32,300 nucleotides of DNA, from contig JAAZKG010000112.1 in assembly GCA_012799935.1 (NCBI GenBank), positions 1-32,300 of the forward strand, written 5' to 3'. This stretch comes from Erysipelotrichia bacterium (GTDB taxonomy: Bacteria; Bacillota_I; Bacilli_A; Erysipelotrichales; Erysipelotrichaceae). This document shows positions 1,972 to 32,300 of this stretch, in pieces (position 1 is the stretch's first letter; each line of letters opens with the position of its first letter). The notes beneath the pieces are model-generated. The model was not told the DNA's origin and did not search any database. It saw nothing but the letters and a program-made list of their open reading frames with translations. The translations under genes were made by a program, and so were the position numbers.

Positions 1972-3441
1972 ATGAAAAAACAATTTATGAAAAACAGTAT
2001 CTTTGAAAAACCATATATGAATTCAAAAATCACAACTGAAGAAATGACTATGAAGGAAAAGATTCTTGGATTTTTGGTTGGTCCATTTGGCATGCTATCT
2101 TTGCAAGCAGTTATTAATCAGCTTGCTGAATTATACTATACCGAGATTTTCTATATTGATCAGATATTTAAAGTAGGTACATATCTGGTAATGTCTTGGG
2201 TCACAAAGATAGTATCCATCTTAGCAGGTTTACTGGTAGCTTACATTGTAGAACATAGTTCTTCATCGCAAGGAAAAATCAGACCTTTTGTTTTAATTGG
2301 CCAATTGTTGTGTGCTTTTTCTGGTTTTTTTATGTTTTTGATTCCAGAAATTGGACAGGTTGGAAAGCTTATCTGGGTTTATATTTTTAATATTCTATAT
2401 AATGGTTTTGGTATAACAATGTTCATGTTAAGAAAAAATATGATTACTCTGGCTACTAGAAATCAAAATGATCGTAATCAAATTAATTTATTTGATAGAG
2501 TATCTAATTTTATGCTGGTAGGTGTAGCAGTTACCCTGGTTGTTGGTTCAATTTTGTACTATACTATGCTTCACGGTTATCCAAAAGAAAACTGGCTTCT
2601 GATTATTGGAGTTATTGCTTTTTTCAGCATCCCATTATCATTTATTAACTATTTTTATACCAAAGAAAGAGTTACTTTGGAGGCTGAAGATATTGAAGGA
2701 GCTATATATAATAAGGAACATAGTACAGATTGGAAGAAGTTTTTAGATTTATTCAAATGTAAGTATTGGAATATGGCTTTTGCGATTACAACTTTAAATT
2801 TGATTGTTGCTAATTTACAAGGTTATAATCTAAACACCAACTTTTGTACGGTAATATTAGGTGCCAATGCTCAAAATAATTATAATTTATTCTATACAAT
2901 AGCATCAGGTTTACCGATGGGTATAGGCATTTTGATAATCTATCCATTAAGCAAGAAGTTTACTATCCGCAAGACCACAATGGCTTTTACATTGATTTCT
3001 ATTATTGGTTGTATAATGGGACTTTTTGTCAAAGATAATTTTACTGGTGCTGTTATTGCATTTTTCATCAATAATGTTGGAACTTTAGCCAGTGTTTATG
3101 TTTTAGATTCACTCCTTTTATCTGCTAATGATGAAGTAGAATATAAATTTCATTTTAGACCTGAAGGAACGGTTGCTTTAGCAGTAACTACTGCAATTGC
3201 CACCATAATTTCAGGAGCTTTTGCAGGAGCATATGAAACAGGTTTAAGTTTTTTTGGTTATCAAGCTCATCTTGGCGTAAATCAATCACAAGGAGTTATT
3301 AACTGGTTATATTTTGTTAGATATATAGTTCCGATTGCTCACTATGTCACTGTATTTGTCATTTTGTATTTTATGGATTTAGAAGAAAAACTTCCGCAAA
3401 TGCAAAAAGAAATTCGTGCTAGAAAGACTATTGAAAAATAA
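1972..3441 (+). CDS. GPH-family sugar:cation symporter (MFS)
   Basis: A 489-residue polytopic membrane protein with about twelve hydrophobic segments. Its general layout is that of glycoside-pentoside-hexuronide:cation symporters (MelB/XylP/YicJ type), including an N-terminal L-G-F-L-V-G-P-F-G-M segment, an FDRVSNF loop and a charged central loop after Y-F-Y-T-K-E-R. GAGGG lies 8 bases before ATG 1972. It is first in an operon with a rhamnosidase, a beta-glucosidase and rhamnose catabolic genes, so the probable cargo is a rhamnose-containing glycoside or rhamnose itself. The nearest alternative would be another oligosaccharide. The cargo is inferred from context; the family is seen from fold and length. 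Confidence 0.85.
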   Translation: MKKQFMKNSIFEKPYMNSKITTEEMTMKEKILGFLVGPFGMLSLQAVINQLAELYYTEIFYIDQIFKVGTYLVMSWVTKIVSILAGLLVAYIVEHSSSSQGKIRPFVLIGQLLCAFSGFFMFLIPEIGQVGKLIWVYIFNILYNGFGITMFMLRKNMITLATRNQNDRNQINLFDRVSNFMLVGVAVTLVVGSILYYTMLHGYPKENWLLIIGVIAFFSIPLSFINYFYTKERVTLEAEDIEGAIYNKEHSTDWKKFLDLFKCKYWNMAFAITTLNLIVANLQGYNLNTNFCTVILGANAQNNYNLFYTIASGLPMGIGILIIYPLSKKFTIRKTTMAFTLISIIGCIMGLFVKDNFTGAVIAFFINNVGTLASVYVLDSLLLSANDEVEYKFHFRPEGTVALAVTTAIATIISGAFAGAYETGLSFFGYQAHLGVNQSQGVINWLYFVRYIVPIAHYVTVFVILYFMDLEEKLPQMQKEIRARKTIEK

Positions 3442-3472
3442 AACCAATAGCTATTCTAAAGGAGATCTTAAG

Positions 3473-6031
3473 ATGAAAGTAATAAGACTAAAAACCGAAT
3501 ATTTAACTAATCCGATTGGTATTAATATTACTTCTCCGCATCTTTTCTGGAATGTAGAAGGATGTATTAAACAGAGCGCTTATCAAGTAATTGCCAAAGA
3601 TGAAAATGACAGGTTGCTTGTTGATACTGGCAAAGTAAATAGTTCCTCGATGAATTATGTTTGGAAAGAAAAACCAGTAAACTATTGTACCAGAGTAAAC
3701 TGGAAGGTAAGAGTGTTTGATGAAAATGATAATGTTTCGGATTATGCAAAAGCTTACTTTGAAATAGGTTTACCTGAAAATAAAAAATGGCCAGCTAAAT
3801 GGATTACTGGCAATTATCAGATTAACAAGAAAAATCGTTATCCTGTTGATTGTTTTAAAAAAGAATTTGAATGTGAAAAGATAAAAAAAGCTAGATTATA
3901 TATTACTGCCTGTGGATTATATGAAGCTAGCATAAATGGTAAAAAAGTTGGAGATGCTGTAATGACTCCAGGTATTACTGATTATCGTAAAAAGGTTCAT
4001 TATCAAAGTTATGATGTTACTGATTATTTAAAACAGGGAAGTAATTTTATAGAAGTATTGCTGGCAGATGGTTGGTATCGTGGTTCAGTTGGTTCTTGGG
4101 GTTTAAGAAATCAATATGGTAAAGAAACAAAAATATTGGCTCAACTGATTATAGAGTATAATAATGGTAGAAAAGAAACCATTATTACCGATAAAAGCTG
4201 GAGCTGGTCTAATAATAGCAGTATTCGTTTTGCGGATAATAAAGATGGTGAGATTGTTGATGCTAATATGATGGTTTTTTATAGTGATTATGCTAAAGAA
4301 ACAACTCATAATGTCATTCCAACCGCTTCCAATAATGTTTTGGTAAAGGAGCATGAACACTTTAAACCAAAACTGATTGTTACTCCAAAGGGCAAAAAGG
4401 TTTTAGATTTTAGTCAAAATATAGCTGGATATATCAGTTTTAAAGTTAATGCAAAAGCTGGACAAAGAGTATATCTGCGCTTTGGTGAAATGCTAGATTT
4501 TGATGGTGAGTTTACTCAAAGAAACATCCAATTAAAAACGAAAAATAAAACAACCCCTTTACAGGAAATTAAATATATCTGTAAGGAAGGGTTAAATGAA
4601 TATAAGACTAAATTTGCAATTTTTGGGTTTCAATATGTACTGGTAGAAACTGAAATAGATTTTAATCAGAATGATTTTACTTCAATTGCTGTATACAGTG
4701 ATATGGAGCAGACTGGTTGGTTTGATAGTTCTAATAAATTATTAAATCAATTCTTTAAAGCCACTATCTGGAGCACTAAAGGTAATAGTAATGATCTTCC
4801 AACTGATTGTCCGACTAGGGAAAGACATGGTTGGACTGGTGATGCTCAGATTTTCTGCAATACCGCTTCATACCTTTTTGATTATAAAACATTTGCAGAA
4901 AAATTTATCAAAGATATGTATAGTTGGCAAAGAAAAGATGGTTGTTTGCCACATATCGTTCCTGATGGAGGAGCTGACTTCTATATGTATGCGATGAATG
5001 GTTCAAATGGTTGGGCTGATGCTGGAATTATCATGCCTTATGTACTATACAAGAAATATAATGATAAAGATATTTTAAAAAGATATCTTAAAGGTATGAG
5101 AAAATATGCTAGATTCATACAGAAAAGGTTTGGTAGTTTTTATCCAACAGCTAAAAAATTGAATTTAAATAAAAAAGAAAAAAAATTTATCAATAATGCT
5201 GGACAGCACTATGGTGAGTGGGCTGAACCTGAAGATGTTCATAAGATGCAGTGGAAAGATTGTGTAATTACTCATCCAGAAACAGCTACATCTTATTCTA
5301 TCTATATAATGGATTTAATGAGTGAAATTGAAATGGTGCTAGACAATTATGAAGAAGCTGTAGCTTATAAAAAATTCGCCGATAAATGTCGCAATTCTTA
5401 TCAAGCTTTAAGAGAAAAATGTCAGAATTATACTTTGGATACTAATCGACAAGCTAGACTTGTCAGGCCATTGTATTTTAATTTATTAAATGAAAAACAG
5501 AAAGAATATGCTGAAAAAAGATTAATTCAAGCTTTGGATAATTACGGTTGGAGACTGGGAACAGGTTTTTTATCAACACCCCTTATTCTATATGTGCTTG
5601 AAAAAATTGATAAGGAATATGCTTATAGATTGTTAGAAAATGAAGAACTACCAGGTTGGCTATCTATGCCAAAACATAAAGCTACAACTATCTGGGAAGC
5701 TTGGGAGGGCAATGCTAACTCTAATGTAGGTTTATGTTCCTTAAACCATTATTCTAAAGGTGCAGTCTGTAGCTGGTTATTTGAATCAATGTGTGGCATC
5801 AATGTTTCTTGTGAAAACCACTTTGTGATTAAACCTGTGCCAGGTGGTAATTTCAATTATGCTAATGCCCAGTATCAAAGTATCTATGGACTGGTTAAAT
5901 CAGGTTGGCAGAAAACTGCTGATGGATATAAATATACTATCAAAATACCATCTAATTGCACTGCCAAGGTAATTCTTCCCAGCGGAAAAATATACACTCA
6001 GCAGGCAGGCGTAACAATTTATGAAGAATAA
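3473..6031 (+). CDS. alpha-L-rhamnosidase, GH78
   Basis: An 852-residue protein starting at ATG 3473, which has AAAGGAG 6-7 bases upstream; the in-frame GTG at 3416 lies inside the transporter gene. It shows the GH78 plan: N-terminal beta domains beginning R-L-K-T-E-Y-L-T-N-P-I-G-I, the W-I-T-G segment, then the catalytic (alpha/alpha)6 barrel. The signature D445-C-P-T-R-E-R-H-G-W-T-G-D457 is clear and contains the family's catalytic acids (D445, E450, D457 region). The W-E742-A-W-E745-G motif later supplies the likely general base. There is no signal peptide, so it hydrolyses terminal alpha-L-rhamnose from glycosides inside the cell after uptake by the neighbouring symporter. Typical GH78 substrates include rutinosides and neohesperidosides; which one is used here is not visible. 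Confidence 0.93.
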   Translation: MKVIRLKTEYLTNPIGINITSPHLFWNVEGCIKQSAYQVIAKDENDRLLVDTGKVNSSSMNYVWKEKPVNYCTRVNWKVRVFDENDNVSDYAKAYFEIGLPENKKWPAKWITGNYQINKKNRYPVDCFKKEFECEKIKKARLYITACGLYEASINGKKVGDAVMTPGITDYRKKVHYQSYDVTDYLKQGSNFIEVLLADGWYRGSVGSWGLRNQYGKETKILAQLIIEYNNGRKETIITDKSWSWSNNSSIRFADNKDGEIVDANMMVFYSDYAKETTHNVIPTASNNVLVKEHEHFKPKLIVTPKGKKVLDFSQNIAGYISFKVNAKAGQRVYLRFGEMLDFDGEFTQRNIQLKTKNKTTPLQEIKYICKEGLNEYKTKFAIFGFQYVLVETEIDFNQNDFTSIAVYSDMEQTGWFDSSNKLLNQFFKATIWSTKGNSNDLPTDCPTRERHGWTGDAQIFCNTASYLFDYKTFAEKFIKDMYSWQRKDGCLPHIVPDGGADFYMYAMNGSNGWADAGIIMPYVLYKKYNDKDILKRYLKGMRKYARFIQKRFGSFYPTAKKLNLNKKEKKFINNAGQHYGEWAEPEDVHKMQWKDCVITHPETATSYSIYIMDLMSEIEMVLDNYEEAVAYKKFADKCRNSYQALREKCQNYTLDTNRQARLVRPLYFNLLNEKQKEYAEKRLIQALDNYGWRLGTGFLSTPLILYVLEKIDKEYAYRLLENEELPGWLSMPKHKATTIWEAWEGNANSNVGLCSLNHYSKGAVCSWLFESMCGINVSCENHFVIKPVPGGNFNYANAQYQSIYGLVKSGWQKTADGYKYTIKIPSNCTAKVILPSGKIYTQQAGVTIYEE

Positions 6032-6066
6032 TCAAATACTCTTTATTTGAGGAAAGGATAAATAAT

Positions 6067-8418
6067 ATGAAGATAAAAGAAATATTAACTAAAATGACTT
6101 TGCAGGAAAAAGTCCAGCTATGTGTCGGTAAATCTTTTTGGGAAACCAAAAAATTTGAGAAATATGGTATTCCTTCTTTCTTTATGTGCGATGGTCCTGC
6201 AGGACTTAGAAAACAGCAGTTAGGAAGTGGTACTGATATGTTGGGGATTAATGATTCCCTGCCAGCAACCTGTTTTCCATCAGCAGTATCGACAGCAAAT
6301 ACTTGGAACAAAGAGCTACTATATCAAATGGGGAAAGCTATTGGCGAAGAAGCCCGAGATCAAGATGTAGCATTAGTGTTAGGTCCAGGAATCAACATTA
6401 AAAGAAACCCACTGTGTGGAAGAAATTTTGAATACTTTAGTGAGGATCCATTGCAAACAGGTCTATTAGCAGCTGAATTTGTCAAAGGTTTGCAGTCACA
6501 GGGAGTTGGTTGTTCATTAAAGCACTTTGCTTGTAATTCACAAGAAAAAAACCGTTTACTTTCAGATAGTGTTATTGATGAAAGGACATTAAGAGAAATC
6601 TATCTCAAGGCTTTTGAAATTGTAGTAAAAACTGCTAATCCAATAACTGTAATGAGTGCCTATAATAAAATTAATGGTGTTTATTGTAGTGACAATAAAA
6701 AACTATTAAATGATATTTTAAGAGAAGAATGGGGTTTTAATGGTTTAGTAGTGACAGATTGGGGGGGAATGAATAATCGTATTAAAGCTTTTATCGCTGG
6801 CAATGACTTAATGATGCCAGGAGGCAGTGATTATATGGAAAAAGATGTGATTGAAGCAGTCAATAAAGGAGAGTTAAGTGAAGAATATATTGATAAGTGC
6901 TGTGAAAGAATCATAAAAATAGCATTAAAGGCAAAAGAACTATTTAAAAATGAATATAAAGCTGATTATAATAAAAATCATAAGTTAGCTGTAAAAATAG
7001 CTGAAGAGGGTGCGGTATTACTTAAAAATGAAAATAATATTTTGCCTTTGAAAGAAGATAAGAAAATTCTTATTGTCGGTGATATGGCAAAATCTGTTCG
7101 TTATCAAGGTTCTGGAAGTAGCCATGTTAATCCAACAAACTTAGAGCATCCAATTGATTACTTAGGTAAGTATCAGTATGCTCAAGGTTGTGATACTGAT
7201 GGCGAGACAACTGAAGAATTACTTTCTGATTTACATACAAAAGCAAAAGAAGCTGATGCTGTGGTTGTTTTTGCTGGTTTACCAAGCAAGTATGAGTCAG
7301 AGGGATTTGATAGAGAACATATGAAAATGCCAAAAGGGCATATTGAGATGATTGAAACAGCAGCTAAAGCTAATGAAAATACAATTGTGGTACTTTTATG
7401 TGGCAGTGCGGTAGAGTGTCCATGGACAGATGATGCTAAGGCAATTCTGTACATGGGCTTGCCAGGACAAGGGGCAGGTCAGGCATGTTATAATTTGCTG
7501 TTTGGAAAAATAAATCCATCAGGAAAACTATCGGAAAGTTGGTCATATAGTTATAGTGATGTTGTCTCATCTTCTTATTATTCTAAGAGCAGAGATGCTT
7601 TATATTTAGAAAGCATTTATGTTGGCTATCGTTATTATGACAAGGCTGATATTAAAGTTAGATGGCCATATGGTTATGGCTTAAGCTATAGCAGTTTTAA
7701 ACTTGATAATTTTAAAATAAGTGATAATAAAGTTAAAGTGAAAGTTATTAATACTGGCAAATATGCTGGCAGTGAAGTAGTACAATTATATGTTGGCCAA
7801 AACAATCCTACATTACATCGACCTTTAAGAGAATTAAAACATTTTGAAAAAGTGAGTTTAAATCCTGGTGAATCAAAAGAAGTTATTTTTGAATTAACAG
7901 ATAATGATTTTGCGGTTTGGGATAATTCCTTTAAAAAGGTTAAAGGTAATTATCGTATAGAAATAGGTACATCAAGTCGAGATATTTATTTCCATAAGGA
8001 TGTTGATATTGATGGAGAAATGGTAAATATACCACAGTGGCAAAAGGACAGTTGGTACGAAAATTGTAAAGGAAGTATCAATCAAACACAGTGGGAAAAA
8101 ATGCTGGGTCGAAGGTATGAACCAGTAAAACTTATAAAAGGGCAATTTACAATGGATAATTCTGTTGCAGAGATGAAAGAGCATTCTTGGATTATGAAGA
8201 TAATTTATAAAGCTGTTGAAAAGGTAATTTCTAAAGGTTTTGATGGAAAAATTGATTACAATAATCCTGATTTTGTGATGTTAATGAATTCCAGTGCTGG
8301 AGCACCTTTAAGATCAATGCAAATAAGCGGTGGGATTAATGGTGGTGTCTTTAAAGGGTTGGTGGAAATGGCTAATGGTCATTTTATTAAAGGCATAATA
8401 AAAATGATAAAAGGTTAA
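6067..8418 (+). CDS. beta-glucosidase-like glycoside hydrolase, GH3
   Basis: A 783-residue cytoplasmic GH3 enzyme with GAGGAAAGGA before ATG 6067. Domain order: TIM-barrel N-domain (M-C-D-G-P-A-G-L-R near residue 40, K-H-F-A-C-N-S-Q-E substrate loop), the nucleophile Asp231 in V-V-T-D-W-G-G-M, the alpha/beta C-domain (G-S-G-S-S-H-V-N), then a fibronectin-III-like domain (V-V-Q-L-Y-V-G-Q). About 150 further residues at the C-terminus lie outside the usual domains and I do not recognise them. It sits 35 bp after the rhamnosidase, so it probably removes the beta-linked glucose left once rhamnose is gone. Specificity inside GH3 (glucose, xylose, others) cannot be read directly. Confidence 0.9.
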   Translation: MKIKEILTKMTLQEKVQLCVGKSFWETKKFEKYGIPSFFMCDGPAGLRKQQLGSGTDMLGINDSLPATCFPSAVSTANTWNKELLYQMGKAIGEEARDQDVALVLGPGINIKRNPLCGRNFEYFSEDPLQTGLLAAEFVKGLQSQGVGCSLKHFACNSQEKNRLLSDSVIDERTLREIYLKAFEIVVKTANPITVMSAYNKINGVYCSDNKKLLNDILREEWGFNGLVVTDWGGMNNRIKAFIAGNDLMMPGGSDYMEKDVIEAVNKGELSEEYIDKCCERIIKIALKAKELFKNEYKADYNKNHKLAVKIAEEGAVLLKNENNILPLKEDKKILIVGDMAKSVRYQGSGSSHVNPTNLEHPIDYLGKYQYAQGCDTDGETTEELLSDLHTKAKEADAVVVFAGLPSKYESEGFDREHMKMPKGHIEMIETAAKANENTIVVLLCGSAVECPWTDDAKAILYMGLPGQGAGQACYNLLFGKINPSGKLSESWSYSYSDVVSSSYYSKSRDALYLESIYVGYRYYDKADIKVRWPYGYGLSYSSFKLDNFKISDNKVKVKVINTGKYAGSEVVQLYVGQNNPTLHRPLRELKHFEKVSLNPGESKEVIFELTDNDFAVWDNSFKKVKGNYRIEIGTSSRDIYFHKDVDIDGEMVNIPQWQKDSWYENCKGSINQTQWEKMLGRRYEPVKLIKGQFTMDNSVAEMKEHSWIMKIIYKAVEKVISKGFDGKIDYNNPDFVMLMNSSAGAPLRSMQISGGINGGVFKGLVEMANGHFIKGIIKMIKG

Positions 8419-8482
8419 AGATAAGCAACAAGGGGTAAATATAATTTGTAATAAGTTATAAAGAAAGTTTGAGGGATAAATA

Positions 8483-9739
8483 ATGAATGGGTATAAAAAG
8501 GCAAAAGAAAGATATGCTGAAGTATCAGTAGATACAGAAAAGGCAATTGAAACACTAAAGAATGTTTCTGTTAGTCTACATTGCTGGCAGGGAGATGATG
8601 TTAGAGGGTTTGACACTGATCCCAGCAAGCCATTAACTGGTGGAATCCAAACTACGGGCAATTATTTAGGAAGAGCTGGAAATTATCAGCAGTTAATGGA
8701 TGATATTGACCTAGTATTAAAGCTAATTCCAGGAAAACCAAAGATGAATCTTCATGCTTCTTATGCAATTTTTGAAGATGGAAATTGGGCTGATAGAAAT
8801 AAACTTCAGCCTAAGCATTTTGAAAAGTGGGTAAACTTCTGTAAAGAAAGAGGGCTGGGATGTGACTTTAATCCAACTTTCTTTTCTCATAAAAAATGTG
8901 ACCCATTAACTTTATCTTCAGCAAATGAGGAAACAAGAAAGTTTTGGATAGATCATGGTAAAGCATGTATTCGTGTTTCCAATTATCTAGCTCAAGAGTT
9001 AAACGACACCTGTGTTATGAATATTTGGACAGGAGATGGCTTAAAAGATATTCCAGGGGATAGATTGGGACCAAGAGTTCGTTATAAGGAAAGTTTAGAT
9101 GAGATATTAAAGGAACCTTATGATTTCAATAAAGTAAAACCATGTATTGAGTCAAAGGTTTTTGGTATTGGTGTAGAAGCATATACAACTGGTTCAGCTG
9201 AATTTGCACTTAGTTATGCTGCTTTTAATAAAGATAAATGTATTCCTTTAATGGACAATGGTCATTATCATCCAACGGAAGTAGTTTCTGATAAAATTTC
9301 AGCCTTATTAACTTTTTTTGATGAAATTGCTTTACATATTACTAGACCAATTAGATGGGATAGTGATCATGTAGTGTTATTTGATGATGAAACAAAAGAA
9401 ATTGCTAGAGAAATTGTTAGATGTGGTATTGATAAGGTAAATATCGCTTTAGATTATTTTGATGCATCTATTAATAGAGTTGCTGCCTGGGTTATAGGTT
9501 ATAGAAATGTTCAAAAAGCTTTGTTATATGGCTTACTTCAACCTATTGAACAATTAAAGAAATTGCAAGAGGAGCAAAAATTTACTGAATTAATGGTAAA
9601 ACAAGAAGAATTAAAAACCATGCCATTTAATGAAATTTGGGATGAATATTGTAATAGATGCAACGTTCCAAAAGATGGCCAATGGTTTGAAATAGTAGAA
9701 GAGTATGAAAGAAAAGTGCTTTCAAAGAGAACACAATAA
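8483..9739 (+). CDS. rhaA: L-rhamnose isomerase
   Basis: A 418-residue protein matching the usual RhaA length, with family segments S-L-H-C-W-Q-G-D-D-V near the N-terminus, K-M-N-L-H-A-S-Y, the C-D-F-N-P-T-F-F-S-H strand, and the metal-site motifs M-D-N-G-H-Y-H-P-T-E and R-W-D-S-D-H-V-V-L. It converts L-rhamnose to L-rhamnulose using divalent metal ions. GAGGGA precedes ATG 8483. Its place after the two glycosidases shows that released rhamnose is consumed in the same operon. Confidence 0.96.
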   Translation: MNGYKKAKERYAEVSVDTEKAIETLKNVSVSLHCWQGDDVRGFDTDPSKPLTGGIQTTGNYLGRAGNYQQLMDDIDLVLKLIPGKPKMNLHASYAIFEDGNWADRNKLQPKHFEKWVNFCKERGLGCDFNPTFFSHKKCDPLTLSSANEETRKFWIDHGKACIRVSNYLAQELNDTCVMNIWTGDGLKDIPGDRLGPRVRYKESLDEILKEPYDFNKVKPCIESKVFGIGVEAYTTGSAEFALSYAAFNKDKCIPLMDNGHYHPTEVVSDKISALLTFFDEIALHITRPIRWDSDHVVLFDDETKEIAREIVRCGIDKVNIALDYFDASINRVAAWVIGYRNVQKALLYGLLQPIEQLKKLQEEQKFTELMVKQEELKTMPFNEIWDEYCNRCNVPKDGQWFEIVEEYERKVLSKRTQ

Positions 9740-9755
9740 ATAATGGTAAAAGAAA

Positions 9756-11018
9756 ATGAAATATTATTTGGCAATTGACATTGGGGCTTCTAGTGGTAGA
9801 CACATTGTTGGGTGGAAAAAAGATGAACAAATACATACTGAAGAATTATACCGTTTTGATAATGGAGTTATAGAAAAAGATAATCATTTAATTTGGGATG
9901 TAGAGTATCTTTTAAGTGAAATAAAAAAGGGAATAACTATAGTAAAAAAAAGATACAATATTGAGTCTCTATCTATTGCTACTTGGGGAGTTGATTATGT
10001 TTTAATGAAAGAAGGTCAAGAAGTTTTCCCAGTATATTCTTATAGAGATAATAGAACCGAAAGAATAATTAATGAAGTGCATTCAATCATCCCTTTTGAA
10101 GAACTATATCAACGCACTGGAAGTCAGTATCAGCCATTTAATACTATTTATCAGCTCTATGATGATAAAAAACAGGGGAGACTAAAAGGGGTTACTGATT
10201 TTCTAATGATGCCAGAATATCTACTTTACAAATTGACTGGTGTCAAGAAAAAAGAATTTACCAATGCCACAACCACAGGAATGATTAATCACGAAAGTCT
10301 AATGTTTGATGAAATGATTATTAATAAACTTGGCATGCCAAAAATTTTGTTTAAAAAACTATATCAACCAAAAGAAATGCTTGGTTATTATGATGGCATA
10401 AAAGTTGTTTTATGTGCTACTCATGATACTGCCAGTGCAGTAGAGGGAATACCTATGAGAGATAATGAACTTTATATTTCTTCAGGGACCTGGTCACTTT
10501 TAGGAGTCAAAACAGAAAAACCAATAACTGATATTAATAGTATGAAAGCCAACTATTCCAATGAAGGAGGAGTGGGATATAACAGATATCAGAAAAACAT
10601 TATGGGCTTGTGGTTAGTTAATGAATTAAAAAAGGAATTATGTCCCAACGAAAATATTAGAGATATTGTTGAAAAAGCTAGCAAAAGTAGTTTTGAAGAA
10701 ATAATTAATGCCAATGATAGTTCTTTATTAGCTCCTGAAAGCATGAAGGATGCTTTTGACAAACTATTAAAAAATAAACCAGAAAGCATTTATGATTATT
10801 TTAGATGTGCTTATAACTCACTTGCACTTTCTTACAAAAAAGCTATTGAAGAGTTAGAAAAAAATACTGGAAAAACTTATTTTAATCTTTATATAGTTGG
10901 AGGAGGTGCCAAAAACAGTTTTCTTAACAGTTTGACTGAAAAAGAAACAGGAAAAAAAGTTATTGCTTTACCAATTGAAGCAACAGCAATAGGAAATATT
11001 AAAATGCAGATGTGGTAA
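9756..11018 (+). CDS. rhaB: rhamnulokinase, C-terminally truncated
   Basis: A FGGY-family sugar kinase beginning Y-Y-L-A-I-D-I-G-A-S-S-G-R, the ATP phosphate loop typical of RhaB. W-G-V-D-Y, T-H-D-T-A-S-A-V (catalytic Asp) and S-S-G-T-W-S-L-L-G follow. It phosphorylates L-rhamnulose. At 420 residues it is short: it stops right after E-A-T-A-I-G-N, where the family normally continues for some 45 residues of C-terminal helices (usual length about 460-490). Other frames beyond 11018 give no convincing remainder. The Shine-Dalgarno before ATG 9756 is weak. The gene may be inactive or only partly active, and no rhaD follows. Confidence 0.88.
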   Translation: MKYYLAIDIGASSGRHIVGWKKDEQIHTEELYRFDNGVIEKDNHLIWDVEYLLSEIKKGITIVKKRYNIESLSIATWGVDYVLMKEGQEVFPVYSYRDNRTERIINEVHSIIPFEELYQRTGSQYQPFNTIYQLYDDKKQGRLKGVTDFLMMPEYLLYKLTGVKKKEFTNATTTGMINHESLMFDEMIINKLGMPKILFKKLYQPKEMLGYYDGIKVVLCATHDTASAVEGIPMRDNELYISSGTWSLLGVKTEKPITDINSMKANYSNEGGVGYNRYQKNIMGLWLVNELKKELCPNENIRDIVEKASKSSFEEIINANDSSLLAPESMKDAFDKLLKNKPESIYDYFRCAYNSLALSYKKAIEELEKNTGKTYFNLYIVGGGAKNSFLNSLTEKETGKKVIALPIEATAIGNIKMQMW

Positions 11019-11098
11019 TAGGAATGCTATAACTAATAATCATCTTTAATGAATTATTTAAACATTTAGATAAATGCATCATTTTTATTAAAATTGTG

Positions 11099-11128
11099 TT
11101 GACAACTGTGAACGCTTACAAGTATAAT
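11099..11128 (+). promoter_or_regulatory. promoter of the beta-glucoside PTS operon
   Basis: TTGACA at 11099-11104 and TATAAT at 11123-11128 are both perfect sigma-A boxes, with an 18-bp spacer. Transcription should start near 11135, just ahead of the RAT/terminator leader. Confidence 0.85.
11107..11120. promoter_or_regulatory. cre-like site (CcpA) in the promoter spacer
   Basis: TGTGAACGCTTACA differs from the cre consensus TGWAANCGNTNWCA at one position. It lies wholly between the -35 and -10 boxes, so CcpA bound there would block polymerase and give glucose repression of the beta-glucoside genes. Confidence 0.7.
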
Positions 11129-11146
11129 AATAGTAGTTATAGATCA

Positions 11147-11183
11147 AGACTTGTTACTTAATCAGAGCTATTAAGGCAAATTC
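11147..11183 (+). promoter_or_regulatory. RAT ribonucleic antiterminator (LicT/BglG target)
   Basis: The leader holds A-G-A-C-TTGTTACT at 11147-11158 and AGGCAAATTC at 11174-11183, matching the two conserved sides of RAT elements (GGATTGTTACT ... GGCAAAACC). Its 3' side is the same sequence as the 5' arm of the following terminator, so the two folds exclude each other. The antiterminator protein is encoded immediately downstream. Confidence 0.75.
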
Positions 11184-11230
11184 TAATTAGTTTATTTGAG
11201 ATAATAAACTAGCATGGATTTGCCTTTTTT
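11175..11230 (+). terminator. conditional leader terminator of the PTS operon
   Basis: GGCAAAT (11175-11181) pairs with ATTTGCC (11218-11224), and an inner stem TAGTTTATT (11188-11196) pairs with AATAAACTA (11203-11211). Six T residues follow at 11225-11230. The outer arm overlaps the RAT, the classical arrangement for antitermination by a BglG-family protein. Confidence 0.85.
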
Positions 11231-11257
11231 GATTAAAAAAAGAAAGGGGTGATGATT

Positions 11258-12139
11258 TTGGGGTTTAATAGAGATCAGATTTATAAAACTATCAAAGTGA
11301 TTAATAACAATATAATAATCGTTAAAGACTTAAATGGCCATGAGATGATAGCGATTGGTAAGGGACTGGGATACAGAAAGAAAAAGTATGACTTTGTGTA
11401 TTCTGATGAAGTTATGAAAACTTATGTTTATGTCGACAAACATAAAAATTCAAACCTATTATTATTTGAAGAAGTCCCTTTTGAAATTGTGGAAGTAGCT
11501 CAGAAAATAATAGATTATGCTACAAAAACTTTGAAACAAAAGTATAATGTAAATCTGCTCGCAAGTCTTTCTGATCACATTAATTTCAGTGTAAATGAGT
11601 ACCATAAAGGAAATGTTACACCAAAATTAGTAAATGAAGAGGTAAAAAGATTTTATAAGGAAGAATATCAGGTTGGTGTTTATGCTATAAAATTAATTAA
11701 CCAAACTCTCGAAATTGAACTACACAAAGATGAAGCTACATCAATTGCGTTTCACTTGATAGTTGCATCGCAAGAAATAACAAATTTTGAAACAAGGGAA
11801 CTGATGTTTAGTGTTAAGAAGATAGTGGATATCACAGGAAAGCATCTAAAAATAGAAATTGATGAAGATTCATTGGCTTATTCACGTTATATTATTCATT
11901 TAAAATTCTTTTTAAGTAGAATTATTCGCAAGCAAACTTTTAATAATACTAGTGAGTTATCAAGCATATTTGGTCAACTTGTAACTAAGTATAAAGAAGT
12001 TGAGAATTGTGTTTTTGAAATAAAAGATTTTATATTTGATGAGTATAACTATAATTGTACTAATGAAGATTGTATATATTTAATGATTCATATTGTAAGA
12101 TTACACGAATTACAAAGAAAGGAAAATAATAATGTCTAA
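11258..12139 (+). CDS. BglG/LicT-family transcriptional antiterminator
   Basis: The layout is an RNA-binding CAT domain (I-K-V-I-N-N-N-I-I-I-V-K-D, G-K-G-L-G-Y) followed by two PTS regulation domains. The four expected regulatory histidines are seen in L-S-D-H-I, I-A-F-H-L, Y-I-I-H-L-K-F-F and Y-L-M-I-H-I. I choose TTG 11258 as start because AAAGGGGTGA lies 6-8 bases before it; ATG 11252 and GTG 11249 overlap the ribosome site. The 293-residue protein would bind the RAT and allow read-through into its own operon when the EIIBC is busy transporting beta-glucoside. It overlaps the EIIBC gene by 8 bp. Confidence 0.93.
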   Translation: MGFNRDQIYKTIKVINNNIIIVKDLNGHEMIAIGKGLGYRKKKYDFVYSDEVMKTYVYVDKHKNSNLLLFEEVPFEIVEVAQKIIDYATKTLKQKYNVNLLASLSDHINFSVNEYHKGNVTPKLVNEEVKRFYKEEYQVGVYAIKLINQTLEIELHKDEATSIAFHLIVASQEITNFETRELMFSVKKIVDITGKHLKIEIDEDSLAYSRYIIHLKFFLSRIIRKQTFNNTSELSSIFGQLVTKYKEVENCVFEIKDFIFDEYNYNCTNEDCIYLMIHIVRLHELQRKENNNV

Positions 12140-13520
12140 AATTAATTATGATGATTTAACTAAAAAAATAGTTGAATATTTAGGTGGTATTGAAAACATC
12201 AATACTGTTACACATTGCGTTACACGATTAAGATTATATTTAAATGATATAGATAAAGCTGATGAAGAAAAGATTAAAAACCTTCCAAATGTATTAGGGG
12301 TTGTATATGGAAATCAGCAATATCAAATAATTTTAGGGGAACATTTATTCCCAGTTTATGATAGTTTAGTTAAAAACTACACTGTTAAAACCGAAGAAGC
12401 TATTGATGAAAATTTAGATGAAGAATTGATTAAGCAAGCTAGTAAAAAGGATTTTAAATATTATTTTGAAAGCGTTATTACTTTCATGGCACAATCATTA
12501 ACACCATTTATTACAGTAGTATATGGCGCGGGCATGTTAAAAGTAATTCTTTCATTATTGAATTATATTGTTCCGACTGTATCAGCTACAACAACGTATA
12601 AAATGTTGAATTTTATGTCTAGTGCACCATTCTACTTTATGCCAGTTTTAGTAGCATATGGAGCTAGTAAGGTGTTAAAAGCAAATCCTGCATTTTCAAT
12701 GGCTATTGCTTTGACTTTAGTATTCCCAGCATTTAATACTATAATGGAAGCTGGGGAACCTATTAAAATGCTTGGACTCCCTGTGCATTTAACAACATAT
12801 GGAAGTACATTACTTCCAGGTATTTTTACTGCAATTTTGTGTGCATATTTAGAAAAGTTATTTTATAGAATTATTCCAGGTGTATTAAGAAGCGTGTTTG
12901 CTCCTTTATGTGTATTCCTTGTTGGTTTCCCAATTGTAATATTATTGTTAGGACCTGTAGGTAATGTAGTTGGTTCTTGGATTGTTGCTGGAATTATTTG
13001 GCTTCAATCAAAAGTTGGTGGGTTTGCTCCTGGCATTATAGCTGCAGCTCAACCATTCTTGGTTATGATGGGTGTTAACATGCTTCCTGTAGCTCCAATG
13101 ATGGAATTATTTACACGTACTGGTTATGACAATGTATTTAGACCAGGATGGATTTTACATAATATTTCAGAAGGTGGTTCTTGTTTTGCAGTGGCATTGA
13201 AGACTAAAGACAAAGAATTCAGGACTACAGCAATATCTGCAGGTATTGGAGCGTTAGTATCTGGCGTATCAGAACCAGCATTATATGGAGTTAACCTTCG
13301 TTTAAAGAAACCTATGCTTAGTTTGGTTATAGGCGGGCTTGCTGGTGGTGCTGTTGCTGGATTTATGGGTGCTAAAGCATTTTCAATGGGTTATTCTTCA
13401 ATTCTTGGAGTTGTAATATTTGAAAAAACAATGGGAGCTATTTTAGCTGGTGTTGCTGTGTCATTTGCTGTTTCGTTTATATGCACATACTTCTTATATG
13501 ATGGAAAGAGTATCAAATAA
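12132..13520 (+). CDS. PTS beta-glucoside transporter EIIBC
   Basis: A 462-residue protein. The EIIB domain comes first, with the phosphorylated Cys29 in V-T-H-C-V-T-R-L-R. An EIIC membrane domain of about ten segments follows from residue ~105, with G-V-S-E-P-A-L-Y-G and R-P-G-W-I-L-H-N as typical loops. It imports and phosphorylates beta-glucosides (cellobiose, salicin, arbutin type). Unlike BglF/BglP, which end in a fused EIIA (about 610-640 residues), this protein stops after EIIC and the EIIA is the next gene. The homologous sucrose/trehalose EIIBC are alternatives, but the LicT-type regulator and GH1 enzyme point to beta-glucosides. Confidence 0.92.
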   Translation: MSKINYDDLTKKIVEYLGGIENINTVTHCVTRLRLYLNDIDKADEEKIKNLPNVLGVVYGNQQYQIILGEHLFPVYDSLVKNYTVKTEEAIDENLDEELIKQASKKDFKYYFESVITFMAQSLTPFITVVYGAGMLKVILSLLNYIVPTVSATTTYKMLNFMSSAPFYFMPVLVAYGASKVLKANPAFSMAIALTLVFPAFNTIMEAGEPIKMLGLPVHLTTYGSTLLPGIFTAILCAYLEKLFYRIIPGVLRSVFAPLCVFLVGFPIVILLLGPVGNVVGSWIVAGIIWLQSKVGGFAPGIIAAAQPFLVMMGVNMLPVAPMMELFTRTGYDNVFRPGWILHNISEGGSCFAVALKTKDKEFRTTAISAGIGALVSGVSEPALYGVNLRLKKPMLSLVIGGLAGGAVAGFMGAKAFSMGYSSILGVVIFEKTMGAILAGVAVSFAVSFICTYFLYDGKSIK

Positions 13521-13522
13521 CG

Positions 13523-15443
<1,921 letters not shown>

Positions 15444-15753: not shown

Positions 15754-16671
15754 CTAGCGTAAGAATGCAGCAACAATTTCTTGCTCTGCTTCTTCATAAT
15801 TTAAACCTAAAGACATTAGTTTGGTAATTTGTTCACCAGCAATTTTACCAATAGCAGCTTCATGAATAAGCTGAGCATCGACATGATTAGCTGTTACATC
15901 AGGAACAGCTTTTACTGTTGCGTAATCCATAATAATAGCATCACAGGCTGAATGTCCTTGACACTTGTTGTTGCCATTTATTACTGAATAAAAGAATTGC
16001 TTAGACTGTCCTTTGGCAACTGAGCGTGAAACAATACTAGCACTAGAATTTTCGCCATCTAGGTCAATATGGAAATCAGTATAAGCTGTTTGATTGCCGG
16101 TAGTTAAGATGACTTCTTTGGTAATTAAAGAAGCATTATCACCGATTGTAGCTTTGGTAAGGCGTTTGGTAAAATCAACTCCTTTAATTTGAGCACTATC
16201 TATTTCCAAAGTGCTTCCTTCAGCTAAATGGATTATTGTTTGAGGACTGATAATTTTATTTCCTGTCCCCACACCTTGACCATAATGTTTTTCTTCATAT
16301 TTCACTTTAGCGTTTTTACCAACATAGAAAGTATGAATACCACTGTGCTGGGTTGCATGTAGTCCATCGTTATGGATCCCACAACCTGCCAGAATATGAA
16401 CCTCACTGTTTTCTCCAATAAAGAAGTCATTATAAACCAAATCATCAAGACCGCTTTCATCTATAAGAGTAGGAATATGGATTAATTCACCTTTGGTATT
16501 AGCTTTTACTACTACATCAATTCCAGACCTATCTAGTTTTTTAACAATTTCAGTGTTTTCACTATTGTTGTGTAATTCACTAATTCCGTTAATACGGAAA
16601 TTATAAGCCCCATTAGGAATATCATCTATTCCTGAAACTTGTTTTAATATTTGTTTTAATTCTGTTTTCAA
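15754..16671 (-). CDS. SufB/SufD-like Fe-S scaffold of a minimal SUF system
   Basis: A 305-residue SufBD-domain protein. I choose TTG 16671 as start: GGAAGGAGAG precedes it and TTGA joins this start to the SufC stop, a four-base overlap; the frame upstream lies inside sufC. It shows the beta-helix pattern of SufB/D (A-E-G-S-T-L-E-I-D, G-D-N-A-S-L-I-T-K) and the C-terminal core C-Q-G-H-S-A-C-D-A-I-I-M-D with I-H-E-A-A-I-G-K-I-A-G-E-Q. It is much shorter than SufB or SufD (about 420-480) and has no partner SufB/D, SufS or SufU nearby. Such single SufB-like/SufC pairs are known as minimal or ancestral SUF-like systems in anaerobes. It probably works as a homodimer with SufC; that is inference. 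Confidence 0.87.
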   Translation of the reverse strand: MKTELKQILKQVSGIDDIPNGAYNFRINGISELHNNSENTEIVKKLDRSGIDVVVKANTKGELIHIPTLIDESGLDDLVYNDFFIGENSEVHILAGCGIHNDGLHATQHSGIHTFYVGKNAKVKYEEKHYGQGVGTGNKIISPQTIIHLAEGSTLEIDSAQIKGVDFTKRLTKATIGDNASLITKEVILTTGNQTAYTDFHIDLDGENSSASIVSRSVAKGQSKQFFYSVINGNNKCQGHSACDAIIMDYATVKAVPDVTANHVDAQLIHEAAIGKIAGEQITKLMSLGLNYEEAEQEIVAAFLR

Positions 16672-17402
16672 AAGTTTACTCTCCTTCCATAGAAGTGGCA
16701 AGAATCTATCCCAAACATTAAATGAGGTATAATTTCTTCGCTTCTTCCATCTTGTACAATGCGTCCTTCTTCAATTACGATAACACGATCAGCAATTTCT
16801 AAAATACGTTCTTGATGAGAAATGACAATGACAATGCCATTGTTTTTAGCTATCAAGTTTTTAAAAACTTGGATTAAGTTTTGAAAACTCCATAAATCAA
16901 TTCCCGCTTCAGGTTCATCGAAGATATATAAGTTAACATTTCTAGCTACCAACATGGCAATTTCAATACGCTTTAACTCACCTCCAGATAAGCTATTATC
17001 TAATTCACGGTAGATATAATTAATAGCGCATAGGCCAACTTGTGATAAGAAACTACAAGCTTCTTCAACACCAAGTTTATGTCCAGCAGCTAAACTAAGT
17101 AGATCAATTACCTTCATTCCTTTAAAGTGGACTGGTTGCTGGAAAGAAAAACCAATACCTGCTTTGGCTCTTTCGTCAATACTGGCATTAGTGATATCTT
17201 TTCCTTCAAAGATAATTTGTCCTTCTGTTGGTTTTTCAATGCCCATAATCATCTTGGCAAGAGTAGATTTACCACTGCCATTTGGCCCTGTAATAGCGAC
17301 AAAGCTACCAGAAGAAATACTTAAATTGATATTGTCAAGGATTTCTTTTTCTTCTGTTGTATCATTTTCAACTTGAAATGATAAGTTTTTAATTTCAAGC
17401 AT
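16668..17402 (-). CDS. SufC-like ABC ATPase of Fe-S cluster assembly
   Basis: A 244-residue soluble ABC ATPase with Walker A G39-P-N-G-S-G-K-S-T47, the signature L-S-G-G-E-L-K-R, Walker B I-F-D-E-P-E-A-G-I-D and the switch histidine in V-I-S-H-Q-E-R. The D-E-P-E-A-G-I-D form and L-S-G-G-E-x-K-R are typical of SufC rather than of import ABC proteins. AAAGGAGA precedes ATG 17402. It overlaps the MarR gene upstream by 8 bp and the scaffold gene downstream by 4 bp, so the three are translated as a unit. It would power conformational change of the SufB/D-like scaffold. Confidence 0.9.
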   Translation of the reverse strand: MLEIKNLSFQVENDTTEEKEILDNINLSISSGSFVAITGPNGSGKSTLAKMIMGIEKPTEGQIIFEGKDITNASIDERAKAGIGFSFQQPVHFKGMKVIDLLSLAAGHKLGVEEACSFLSQVGLCAINYIYRELDNSLSGGELKRIEIAMLVARNVNLYIFDEPEAGIDLWSFQNLIQVFKNLIAKNNGIVIVISHQERILEIADRVIVIEEGRIVQDGRSEEIIPHLMFGIDSCHFYGRRVNF

Positions 17403-27122: not shown

Positions 27123-28485
27123 ATGACAAGCAAATTAACCGCAAAACAAAGGCTTTTAGTAGCCGTAACTTTATTTGGAATGTTTTTTGGGGCTGGTAAT
27201 TTAATATTTCCGGTTCATTTAGGACAGTTGGCTGGTAAAAATGTTGTACCTGCTATGATAGGATTTATAATTACCGCAGTTACGATTCCAATTTTAGGAG
27301 TGGCAGCTATTGGTAATACTCATAGTGATGGCTTACATTCACTTTCAACTAAAGTATCGAAAGGATATGGTTATTTTTTCACTTGTTTACTTTATTTAAC
27401 AATTGGACCATTTTTTGCGATTCCAAGATGTGCAACAACTTCATTTACTACTGGCGTTGAACCGATGCTTACTCAAAGTGTAAATAAATCTTTGGTGTTT
27501 GTTCATCTTTTCTTTTATCTTTTTTGCTTGGGTTTTATTTTTCTCACTGCGACCAAGTAAGATTACTGTTTGGATTGGGAAAATTATAAATCCATTATTT
27601 TTGCTTTTCTTAGGTATTTTAGTAGTAACTGCACTGTTAAATCCTTCAATCAATGTCAGTGAAGTAATTCCAGTTGATGCTTATCAAAGTTCAGCCTTAT
27701 TTTCTGGTTTTATTGAAGGTTATGGCACGATGGATGCTATTGCAGGACTTGCTTTTGGTATTGTAGTTATTGATATTATCAGAGATATGGGTTTAAAAGA
27801 TAATGGTGATATTGCTAAAGAAGTCTTAAAGTCAGGAGTTATTACTGGTATTTTAATGGCTGTTATCTATATCGCGACTATTGTCATGGGCGCTCAATCT
27901 AGAGGCTTATTTGAACTTTCAGCTAATGGTGGTATTGCCTTAGCTCAGATTTCTAACCATTATTTAGGTAAAGTTGGAAGTTTAGTATTAGCTTTAACTA
28001 TTACCTTTGCTTGTTTAAAAACATCTATTGGACTGGTAACAAGTTGTTCGCAAGCTTTTGTAAGAATGTTTCCAAATGGTTTGTCTTATAATCTTTGGGC
28101 AATTATTTTTACTGTTTTCTCATTTGCGGTTTCTAATATCGGTTTATCAAATATTATTAATTATTCTATACCAGTGTTGATGTTTTTATACCCACTGGCT
28201 ATTACTTTAATTTTATTGGCTTTAACAGGAGATTTATTTAATCATGATAAAGTTGTTTATCTAAGTGTTAGCAGTTTTACACTATTAGCAGCAATCTTTG
28301 ATTTGATTAAAACCTTACCTGCTAATTTACAAAATATATTAAATGCTGATATTTTATTGCAGTTTGCTAAAAAGATTTTACCATTCTTTGAAATAAATTT
28401 AGGTTGGATTGTTCCATCATTAATTGGTTTAGTATTAGGTTTATTATTACGTTTTACTTTAATAGAAAAACGGGACAGTACATAA
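27123..28485 (+). pseudogene. brnQ: branched-chain amino acid symporter BrnQ, interrupted by a frameshift
   Basis: The first reading (27123-27560) starts with L-F-G-M-F-F-G-A-G-N-L-I-F-P, the hallmark BrnQ N-terminus, and runs to G-V-E-P-M-L then N-K-S-L-V-F before turning into T-A-T-K stop. The second (from about 27500 to 28485) begins F-I-F-S-F-I-F-F-A-W-V-L-F-F-S-L-R-P-S-K and carries the remaining LIVCS domain. Joined, they give one ~453-residue symporter of normal length. A single extra base in the T-rich run around 27491-27502 accounts for the break. In vivo inactivation, phase variation at the run, or an assembly error are all possible. Confidence 0.9.
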
Positions 28486-31053: not shown

Positions 31054-31200
31054 TGAAAGAATAACTAATTTTTATTATATTTTCAATAATAGATAAAATT
31101 CAATAATATCACATCAATCATTTAATTAGTGTACAAAAAAGAGGACATTGTATTAATTGAATATATTATATACTTGGTATAAAGTAATGGAGGGAATAAT

Positions 31201-32300
31201 ATGACTACTACGTTTAGTTATGACATTGGTATAGCCTCAATTGGTTCAGCTGTTGAAAAAGATAATAAATTAGTTTATATGGGAACCAGAGTCTTTAATG
31301 AGGCTATTTCTGCTAAAGAAGCAAGATTGAATAGAAGTTCAAGAAGAACAACTAGAAGAAAAACTTGGCGAAAAAATCAAATGAAAAATGCATTTATAGA
31401 TTTTAGAGTTATAGAAGAAAAAGATCTTAAAATGCCTGGTTTTATGAGTTTCACTACAGATAATGAATATTTTAAAAGACCTATAGATAATTCGGTATAC
31501 CACTTAAGAAAAAGAGCACTTTCAGAAAAAGTTACAAAAAGAGAACTGTTATTAGCTCTTTACAACATTTGTGGAACAAGAGGTCATTTTCTTCTTGAAA
31601 CAATTGATTTTTCAAAAGGTGGAATATCTTTTGAAATGTACAAAGATAGATTTTATCAGTTAACAGATAGTTATGTAGATTTCGTGCAAGATACAAACGA
31701 ATTTGATAAAATTCTAAGAAAACTTTTTGATGGAGATTTAAATGACCGAGAAATAAAAAATACAATTTCTAAAAATAGGTTCACTATTGATGAGGAAAGC
31801 GAAACGATTTTAATAGTTTTTTTAAGAATGCTTTGTAACTATAAGGTTAAACCTCAAAGAATTTCTGAAAAATTAGATGAATTTAGTACCCCTGTTAAAA
31901 TTGATGATTTAAAAAAACAAGATGAGTTAAGCTCTTTCTATGAAGAAGTTATTGAACTTTATGATTTATCGAATGTTGCCAGAATATTGAAAAATTACAA
32001 TTACTTATGTGAACTTGCGGTTGATAATATGGATGAATATAGAAAGTCTCAACAAGAAGGCGAAGAAGCGTATGAATCAATAAAGGAAAGTATTAAAAGT
32101 AAAGCAGCAAATAATGCGAGTCACTCAAGATCTGTTAAAAATCTTGCAAACTCTTTTCCTAATGGTTTATATGTAAAAGAAGCAAGTGATATATTAAGAA
32201 AACAACAAGAGTATTATCCAGAAATAACTGATCGATTTATTGAAGTTTGTACATCAATTATTTCAGCTAGAATACCTTATTATATTGGACCTTTGGATGA
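31201..32300 (+). CDS. cas9: Cas9 N-terminal part (type II CRISPR), 3' end outside window
   Basis: An open frame from ATG 31201, with GGAGGG 6-7 bases before it, runs without a stop to the window edge (366 codons). It starts with a RuvC-I motif, F-S-Y-D8-I-G-I-A-S-I-G-S-A-V, where D8 is the expected catalytic Asp. An arginine-rich bridge helix follows (residues ~40-60: A-R-L-N-R-S-S-R-R-T-T-R-R-K). REC-lobe markers follow: Y-H-L-R-K-R-A-L, E-L-L-L-A-L-Y-N-I and R-G-H-F-L-L-E, then I-P-Y-Y-I-G-P-L-D near the end. This order is specific to Cas9. The usual W of the G-W-A-V motif is S here. HNH, RuvC-II/III and the PAM domain are not visible, nor is an array, tracrRNA or cas1/cas2. Confidence 0.95.
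   Translation, partial: MTTTFSYDIGIASIGSAVEKDNKLVYMGTRVFNEAISAKEARLNRSSRRTTRRKTWRKNQMKNAFIDFRVIEEKDLKMPGFMSFTTDNEYFKRPIDNSVYHLRKRALSEKVTKRELLLALYNICGTRGHFLLETIDFSKGGISFEMYKDRFYQLTDSYVDFVQDTNEFDKILRKLFDGDLNDREIKNTISKNRFTIDEESETILIVFLRMLCNYKVKPQRISEKLDEFSTPVKIDDLKKQDELSSFYEEVIELYDLSNVARILKNYNYLCELAVDNMDEYRKSQQEGEEAYESIKESIKSKAANNASHSRSVKNLANSFPNGLYVKEASDILRKQQEYYPEITDRFIEVCTSIISARIPYYIGPLD

What the first reader, a model, noticed from the sequence alone, without database searches (positions are those of the whole stretch)
31201..32300. Start of a Cas9 gene at the right edge, with an altered RuvC-I motif
A stop-free frame carries RuvC-I, bridge helix and REC-lobe motifs of Cas9. The motif reads G-I-A-S-I-G-S-A-V where most Cas9 have G-W-A-V. 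The subtype cannot be fixed from one third of the protein. The preceding 147 bases show no repeat or anti-repeat, so array, tracrRNA and cas1/2 should lie downstream.
Basis: partly seen in the sequence, partly recalled or inferred. Interest (0 to 1): 0.75.

Follow-up and report, generated by a model that had tools for sequence, protein, structure and literature searches.

The report
Truncated ordinary type II-A Cas9 gene
The window ends inside the front third of a normal, selectively maintained Cas9 gene of an uncultured Erysipelotrichia-type bacterium, and the supposedly altered motif residue varies freely among Cas9 proteins, so this is an ordinary new member of a known CRISPR system.

Summary
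In detail: an ATG at 31201, behind a good ribosome-binding site, opens a frame that runs without a stop to the contig end (the window is the whole 32,300-base contig) and encodes the first 366 residues of a Cas9 (TIGR01865, E 3e-52). The 'altered' RuvC-I motif is not a novelty: the catalytic Asp is kept, and the Trp position is Trp, Ser, Val, Phe or Tyr across Cas9s of the same order; Ser recurs in two other relatives, and Val stands there in solved St1Cas9. A sister species' cas9 (90% identical, open for 634 codons) shows purifying selection (dN/dS about 0.16). Relatives at 42-49% identity form one clade; complete loci read cas9 - tracrRNA - cas1 - cas2 - divergent csn2 - array. So the gene most likely heads a type II-A system with the tracrRNA in the cas9-cas1 gap. 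The remainder is missing from the assembly (84% complete MAG), so HNH, RuvC-II/III, array and tracrRNA of this organism were not seen. In a congeneric genome the same site holds other defence genes. Verdict: new member of a known kind, low interest.

The parts
31189..31194 (+). likely ribosome-binding site (GGAGGG) of cas9
   Evidence: read directly from sequence
31201..32300 (+). cas9, first 366 codons; cut by the end of the contig
   Evidence: contig length 32300
31219..31254 (+). RuvC-I motif YDIGIASIGSAV with catalytic Asp (codon 8, 31222-31224); Ser at codon 16 in the usual Trp column
   Evidence: alignment of 25 Cas9s
31327..31386 (+). arginine-rich bridge helix (LNRSSRRTTRRKTWRKNQMK, approximate limits)
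   Evidence: alignment
31498..31608 (+). REC-lobe signature YHLRKRALSEKVTKRELLLALYNICGTRGHFLLETID (approximate limits)
   Evidence: alignment; PDB matches
31054..31200 (+). gap between NUDIX gene and cas9; cas9 leader region, no anti-repeat

Best explanation
This is the 5' third of a normal cas9 gene heading a type II-A CRISPR-Cas locus in an uncultured Erysipelotrichia-type bacterium. In the intact chromosome it is most likely followed by a short tracrRNA gene in the cas9-cas1 gap, then cas1, cas2, a divergent ~290-residue csn2 and a CRISPR array with 36-base repeats near GTTCTTRAGGAYT...TTTGNAC. It should work as other Cas9s do: the tracrRNA pairs with pre-crRNA, RNase III trims it, and the dual-RNA-loaded Cas9 cuts matching phage or plasmid DNA with HNH and RuvC. 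Shown here: Cas9 identity of the fragment, its catalytic Asp, purifying selection, its clade, and the locus plan of clade members. Inferred: the downstream parts and the activity in this organism.
For: TIGR01865 178 bits; 90% identical orthologue in a sister MAG, open for 634 codons with a Pfam REC-lobe match; dN/dS NG86 0.056/0.359 = 0.16; 14-member clade at 100/100 support, window in it; complete loci with cas9-cas1-cas2-fourth gene-array in clade members; Cas1 is the type II form (TIGR03639, 265 bits); fourth-gene profile resembles Csn2 (hhalign E 3.5e-6, score 47.7; 20 shuffles at most 20.8; Cas1 control 14.7); anti-repeat in the cas9-cas1 gap next to a terminator-like hairpin in eight loci; full-length relatives carry HNH_4 and Cas9_RuvC.
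Against: Only 366 of about 1,330 residues are seen. No further cas9 piece, cas1 or repeat array was found in the organism's own assembly; the simplest reading is an incomplete MAG (83.8%), but loss of the downstream part is not strictly excluded. The cas1 search had no positive control genome.
Confidence: 0.92

Rival explanations
1. The Trp-to-Ser change in RuvC-I marks a functionally altered Cas9, for instance a nickase or nuclease-dead form.
For: Ser replaces a bulky aromatic residue eight positions after the catalytic Asp; it is kept in both species of the genus.
Against: The catalytic Asp is intact. The same column is W, S, V, F or Y in Cas9s of the order, with HNH_4 and Cas9_RuvC matches in the Ser-bearing relative L076; S. 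thermophilus St1Cas9 (PDB 6rj9) has Val there (alignment). Within the clade the column has changed repeatedly.
Confidence: 0.03
2. The gene is a decaying remnant or a genuinely truncated Cas9 whose end happens to coincide with the contig end.
For: The rest of cas9 and all other cas genes are absent from the assembly, and the sister MAG also breaks inside cas9.
Against: No stop before the contig edge; dN/dS 0.16 between two species; the two assemblies break at different codons (366 and 634), as expected of assembly gaps; both MAGs are only 80-84% complete.
Confidence: 0.04
3. The protein belongs to an IscB/TnpB-like or Cas9d-like compact family.
For: Weak Cas9d match, 25 bits.
Against: The curated Cas9d cut-off is 375 bits; relatives at 42-49% identity with complete genes are about 1,317-1,355 residues long with a large REC lobe, in four-gene loci.
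Confidence: 0.01

Closest known systems
Type II-A CRISPR-Cas9 of S. thermophilus CRISPR1 kind (St1Cas9)
   Same: Best-scoring solved structure for the fragment (E 3.5e-9); non-Trp residue in the same RuvC-I column (Val); fourth gene longer than the ~220-residue Csn2; tracrRNA location departs from the S. pyogenes plan (PMC3936727 notes this for S. thermophilus CRISPR1; that it lies between cas9 and cas1 there is from my own knowledge).
   Different: Relatives are ~1,330 residues against 1,121; larger REC region; fourth gene ~290 residues rather than ~350 (PMC3936727) and not recognised by Pfam, NCBIfam or PADLOC.
SpyCas9-type II-A systems, including FrCas9 of Faecalibaculum rodentium (PMC8931148)
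   Same: Gene order, protein length, REC signatures; the full-length Ser-bearing relative L076 scores best against long Cas9s such as 9vj8 and SpyCas9.
   Different: SpyCas9-like sequences of the same order (with PF09711 Csn2) lie in another clade; FrCas9's tracrRNA lies upstream of cas9 (PMC8931148), whereas in this clade the anti-repeat lies downstream.

Membership tests
Cas9 (TIGR01865) | curated family score | tested here: met
   178 bits over a cut-off of 100
Cas9 (TIGR01865) | RuvC-I catalytic Asp, Arg-rich bridge helix, REC lobe | tested here: met
   alignment with 24 other Cas9s; Cas9_REC in the 634-residue sister copy
Cas9 (TIGR01865) | HNH domain and RuvC-II/III | not testable with these tools
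   contig ends at codon 366; present in full-length clade members
Type II-A CRISPR-Cas | csn2 as fourth gene after cas9-cas1-cas2 | tested here: inconclusive
   absent from this contig; in relatives a fourth gene related to Csn2 by profile, below library thresholds
Type II-A CRISPR-Cas | type II cas1 and cas2 | tested here: inconclusive
   met in relatives; not found in own assembly
Type II-A CRISPR-Cas | CRISPR array and tracrRNA | tested here: inconclusive
   present in relatives; not found in own assembly with the relatives' repeat pattern, controls positive
IscB/TnpB or Cas9d | compact protein without the large REC lobe, or Cas9d cut-off score | tested here: not met
   Cas9d 24.8 bits against a cut-off of 375; REC region present

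The most novel reading that the evidence does not exclude
The clade is a distinct II-A subgroup: a ~1,330-residue Cas9 with a compact tracrRNA tucked into the short cas9-cas1 gap, and a ~290-residue Csn2 family that current libraries do not recognise. Whether it equals one of the Csn2 types already proposed by Chylinski et al. 2014 could not be checked.
Probability: 0.3. Interest if true: 0.3.

Novelty: new member of a known kind. Interest (0 to 1): 0.12.

Why it matters
It adds one more Cas9 to a little-sampled II-A clade of Erysipelotrichia-type bacteria. The use of the result is mainly corrective: the Trp in the RuvC-I 'GWAV' string is not a conserved catalytic feature and its replacement should not be flagged as unusual. 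The clade's compact tracrRNA position and unrecognised Csn2 would be useful for annotation.

Tried and rejected
Looked for the rest of cas9, cas1 and the array in the own and sister assemblies: nothing. A first repeat pattern was off by one base and missed its own positive controls; corrected. Viral contigs, phages and plasmids gave no relatives, so no sign of a mobile or phage-borne origin. A single-domain HNH_4 search in the own genome was empty, as expected for a cut gene. Sequence search of the fourth gene against solved structures was empty. The ~290-residue fourth genes of the shorter-Cas9 loci (L085, L087) did not align with this Csn2 group, judged from only two sequences.

Full report
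What is there. The window is the whole of contig C38 (32,300 bases) of a 1.54 Mb metagenome-assembled genome, 83.8% complete. The last gene, ATG at 31201, is open to the contig end: 366 codons, with GGAGGG at 31189-31194. It is the N-terminal third of a Cas9: TIGR01865 178 bits, E 3e-52, five PADLOC Cas9 models, PDB Cas9 chains from E 3.5e-9. The short fragment alone matches no Pfam model, but the 634-codon sister copy matches Cas9_REC at 108 bits.

The motif. The catalytic Asp of RuvC-I is present at codon 8. In Cas9s collected from the same order it is Trp, Ser, Val, Phe or Tyr. Ser also occurs in L076 (DIGIGSIGSAV) and L077 (DIGITSIGSAA), from another genus of the same family; Val in L036 and in solved St1Cas9 (alignment). 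In the tree the Ser rows do not form one branch (two changes needed among the labelled rows), and the smallest well-supported set beyond the sister pair holds four Ser and one Val. The Ser-bearing L076 has HNH_4 and Cas9_RuvC domains above Pfam's cut-offs. There is therefore no reason to see a change of function.

Maintenance. A second species of the genus (G154, public contig JAAZJL010000063.1, 'Erysipelotrichia bacterium') has the same gene at the same place next to the same NUDIX gene, 90% identical in protein, open for 634 codons until its own contig ends. Between the two, dN is 0.056 and dS 0.359 (NG86), a ratio of about 0.16: purifying selection. The breaks lie at different codons and the rest of the gene is not elsewhere in either assembly, which fits assembly gaps in 80-84% complete genomes.

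Subtype. Searches of 196 genomes of the family and 316 of the order found a compact set of relatives at 42-49% identity; with the window and its sister they form a 14-member clade at 100/100 support. Where the contig is long enough the locus is usually cas9, cas1, cas2, a ~290-residue fourth gene, then an array of 36-base repeats beginning GTTCTT(A/G)AGGA; one member (L041, G054) has a split cas9 frame with no cas1 next to it. Cas1 is the type II form. The fourth gene is not recognised by Pfam, NCBIfam or PADLOC, yet its profile aligns with canonical ~225-residue Csn2s of other loci in the order (two of which match PF09711) over 192 columns at E 3.5e-6, score 47.7, against at most 20.8 in 20 column shuffles and 14.7 for Cas1. 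II-A is the subtype marked by csn2 (PMC3936727), so II-A is the best placement, by inference from relatives.

tracrRNA. In seven clade loci a scan places a partial anti-repeat directly after the cas9 stop, in the cas9-cas1 gap; the eighth (L039) shows it by reading the gap sequence. A G+C-rich hairpin followed by T-rich sequence comes next, on the cas9 strand. This explains why the window's 147-base gap upstream of cas9 has no anti-repeat. PMC3936727 states that tracrRNA location in S. thermophilus CRISPR1 differs from other II-A loci; FrCas9 of Faecalibaculum rodentium has it upstream of cas9 (PMC8931148). Expression of these RNAs is inferred from sequence only.

Surroundings. The five other genomes of the genus have no cas9 hit. 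In G026 (99% complete) gene order matches the window up to the NUDIX gene, but instead of cas9 there follow a PLD-SNF2 helicase protein and a type IIG restriction-methylase-like protein. The site next to the NUDIX gene thus seems to hold alternative defence genes; this rests on one comparison. Absence from phage, plasmid and viral collections gives no hint of a mobile carrier.

Verdict. The gene is an ordinary member of a known kind. What could not be shown is the C-terminal two thirds, the array and the guide RNAs of this organism.

Noticed in passing
27123-28485: brnQ (branched-chain amino acid carrier) is split into two overlapping frames of 145 and 328 codons, whereas the sister species has one 465-codon gene (L043 5892-7289); a frameshift or an assembly error.
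   Followed up: partly
L104:1-4514 (G026): At the site next to the NUDIX gene where the window has cas9, a congeneric genome has a PLD-SNF2 helicase (C3a139-like) and a type IIG restriction-methylase-like gene: possible defence hotspot.
   Followed up: partly
15754-17402: A SufC-like ATPase and a short (315 aa) SufB/D-like protein beside a MarR-like regulator; reads like a minimal SUF/SMS iron-sulfur pair, below curated cut-offs.
   Followed up: partly
1972-15443: Sugar-use region: transporter, rhamnosidase-like protein, beta-glucosidase, L-rhamnose isomerase, rhamnulokinase, beta-glucoside-type PTS and 6-phospho-beta-glucosidase; only the isomerase was checked against a library.
   Followed up: no
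L036:13702-14580, L035:3475-4359 and relatives: Fourth cas gene of ~290 residues, unrecognised by Pfam, NCBIfam and PADLOC, distantly related to Csn2 by profile comparison.
   Followed up: yes
L085:2035-2907, L087:11239-12102: Another ~290-residue fourth gene in loci with ~1,100-residue Cas9s; the L085 copy has no Pfam match, and neither Csn2 group here aligns with it.
   Followed up: partly
L041:8383-12376 (G054): The cas9 relative in G054 is split into two frames (734 and 602 codons) and is followed by restriction-modification-like genes rather than cas1-cas2; a possible decayed or rearranged locus.
   Followed up: no
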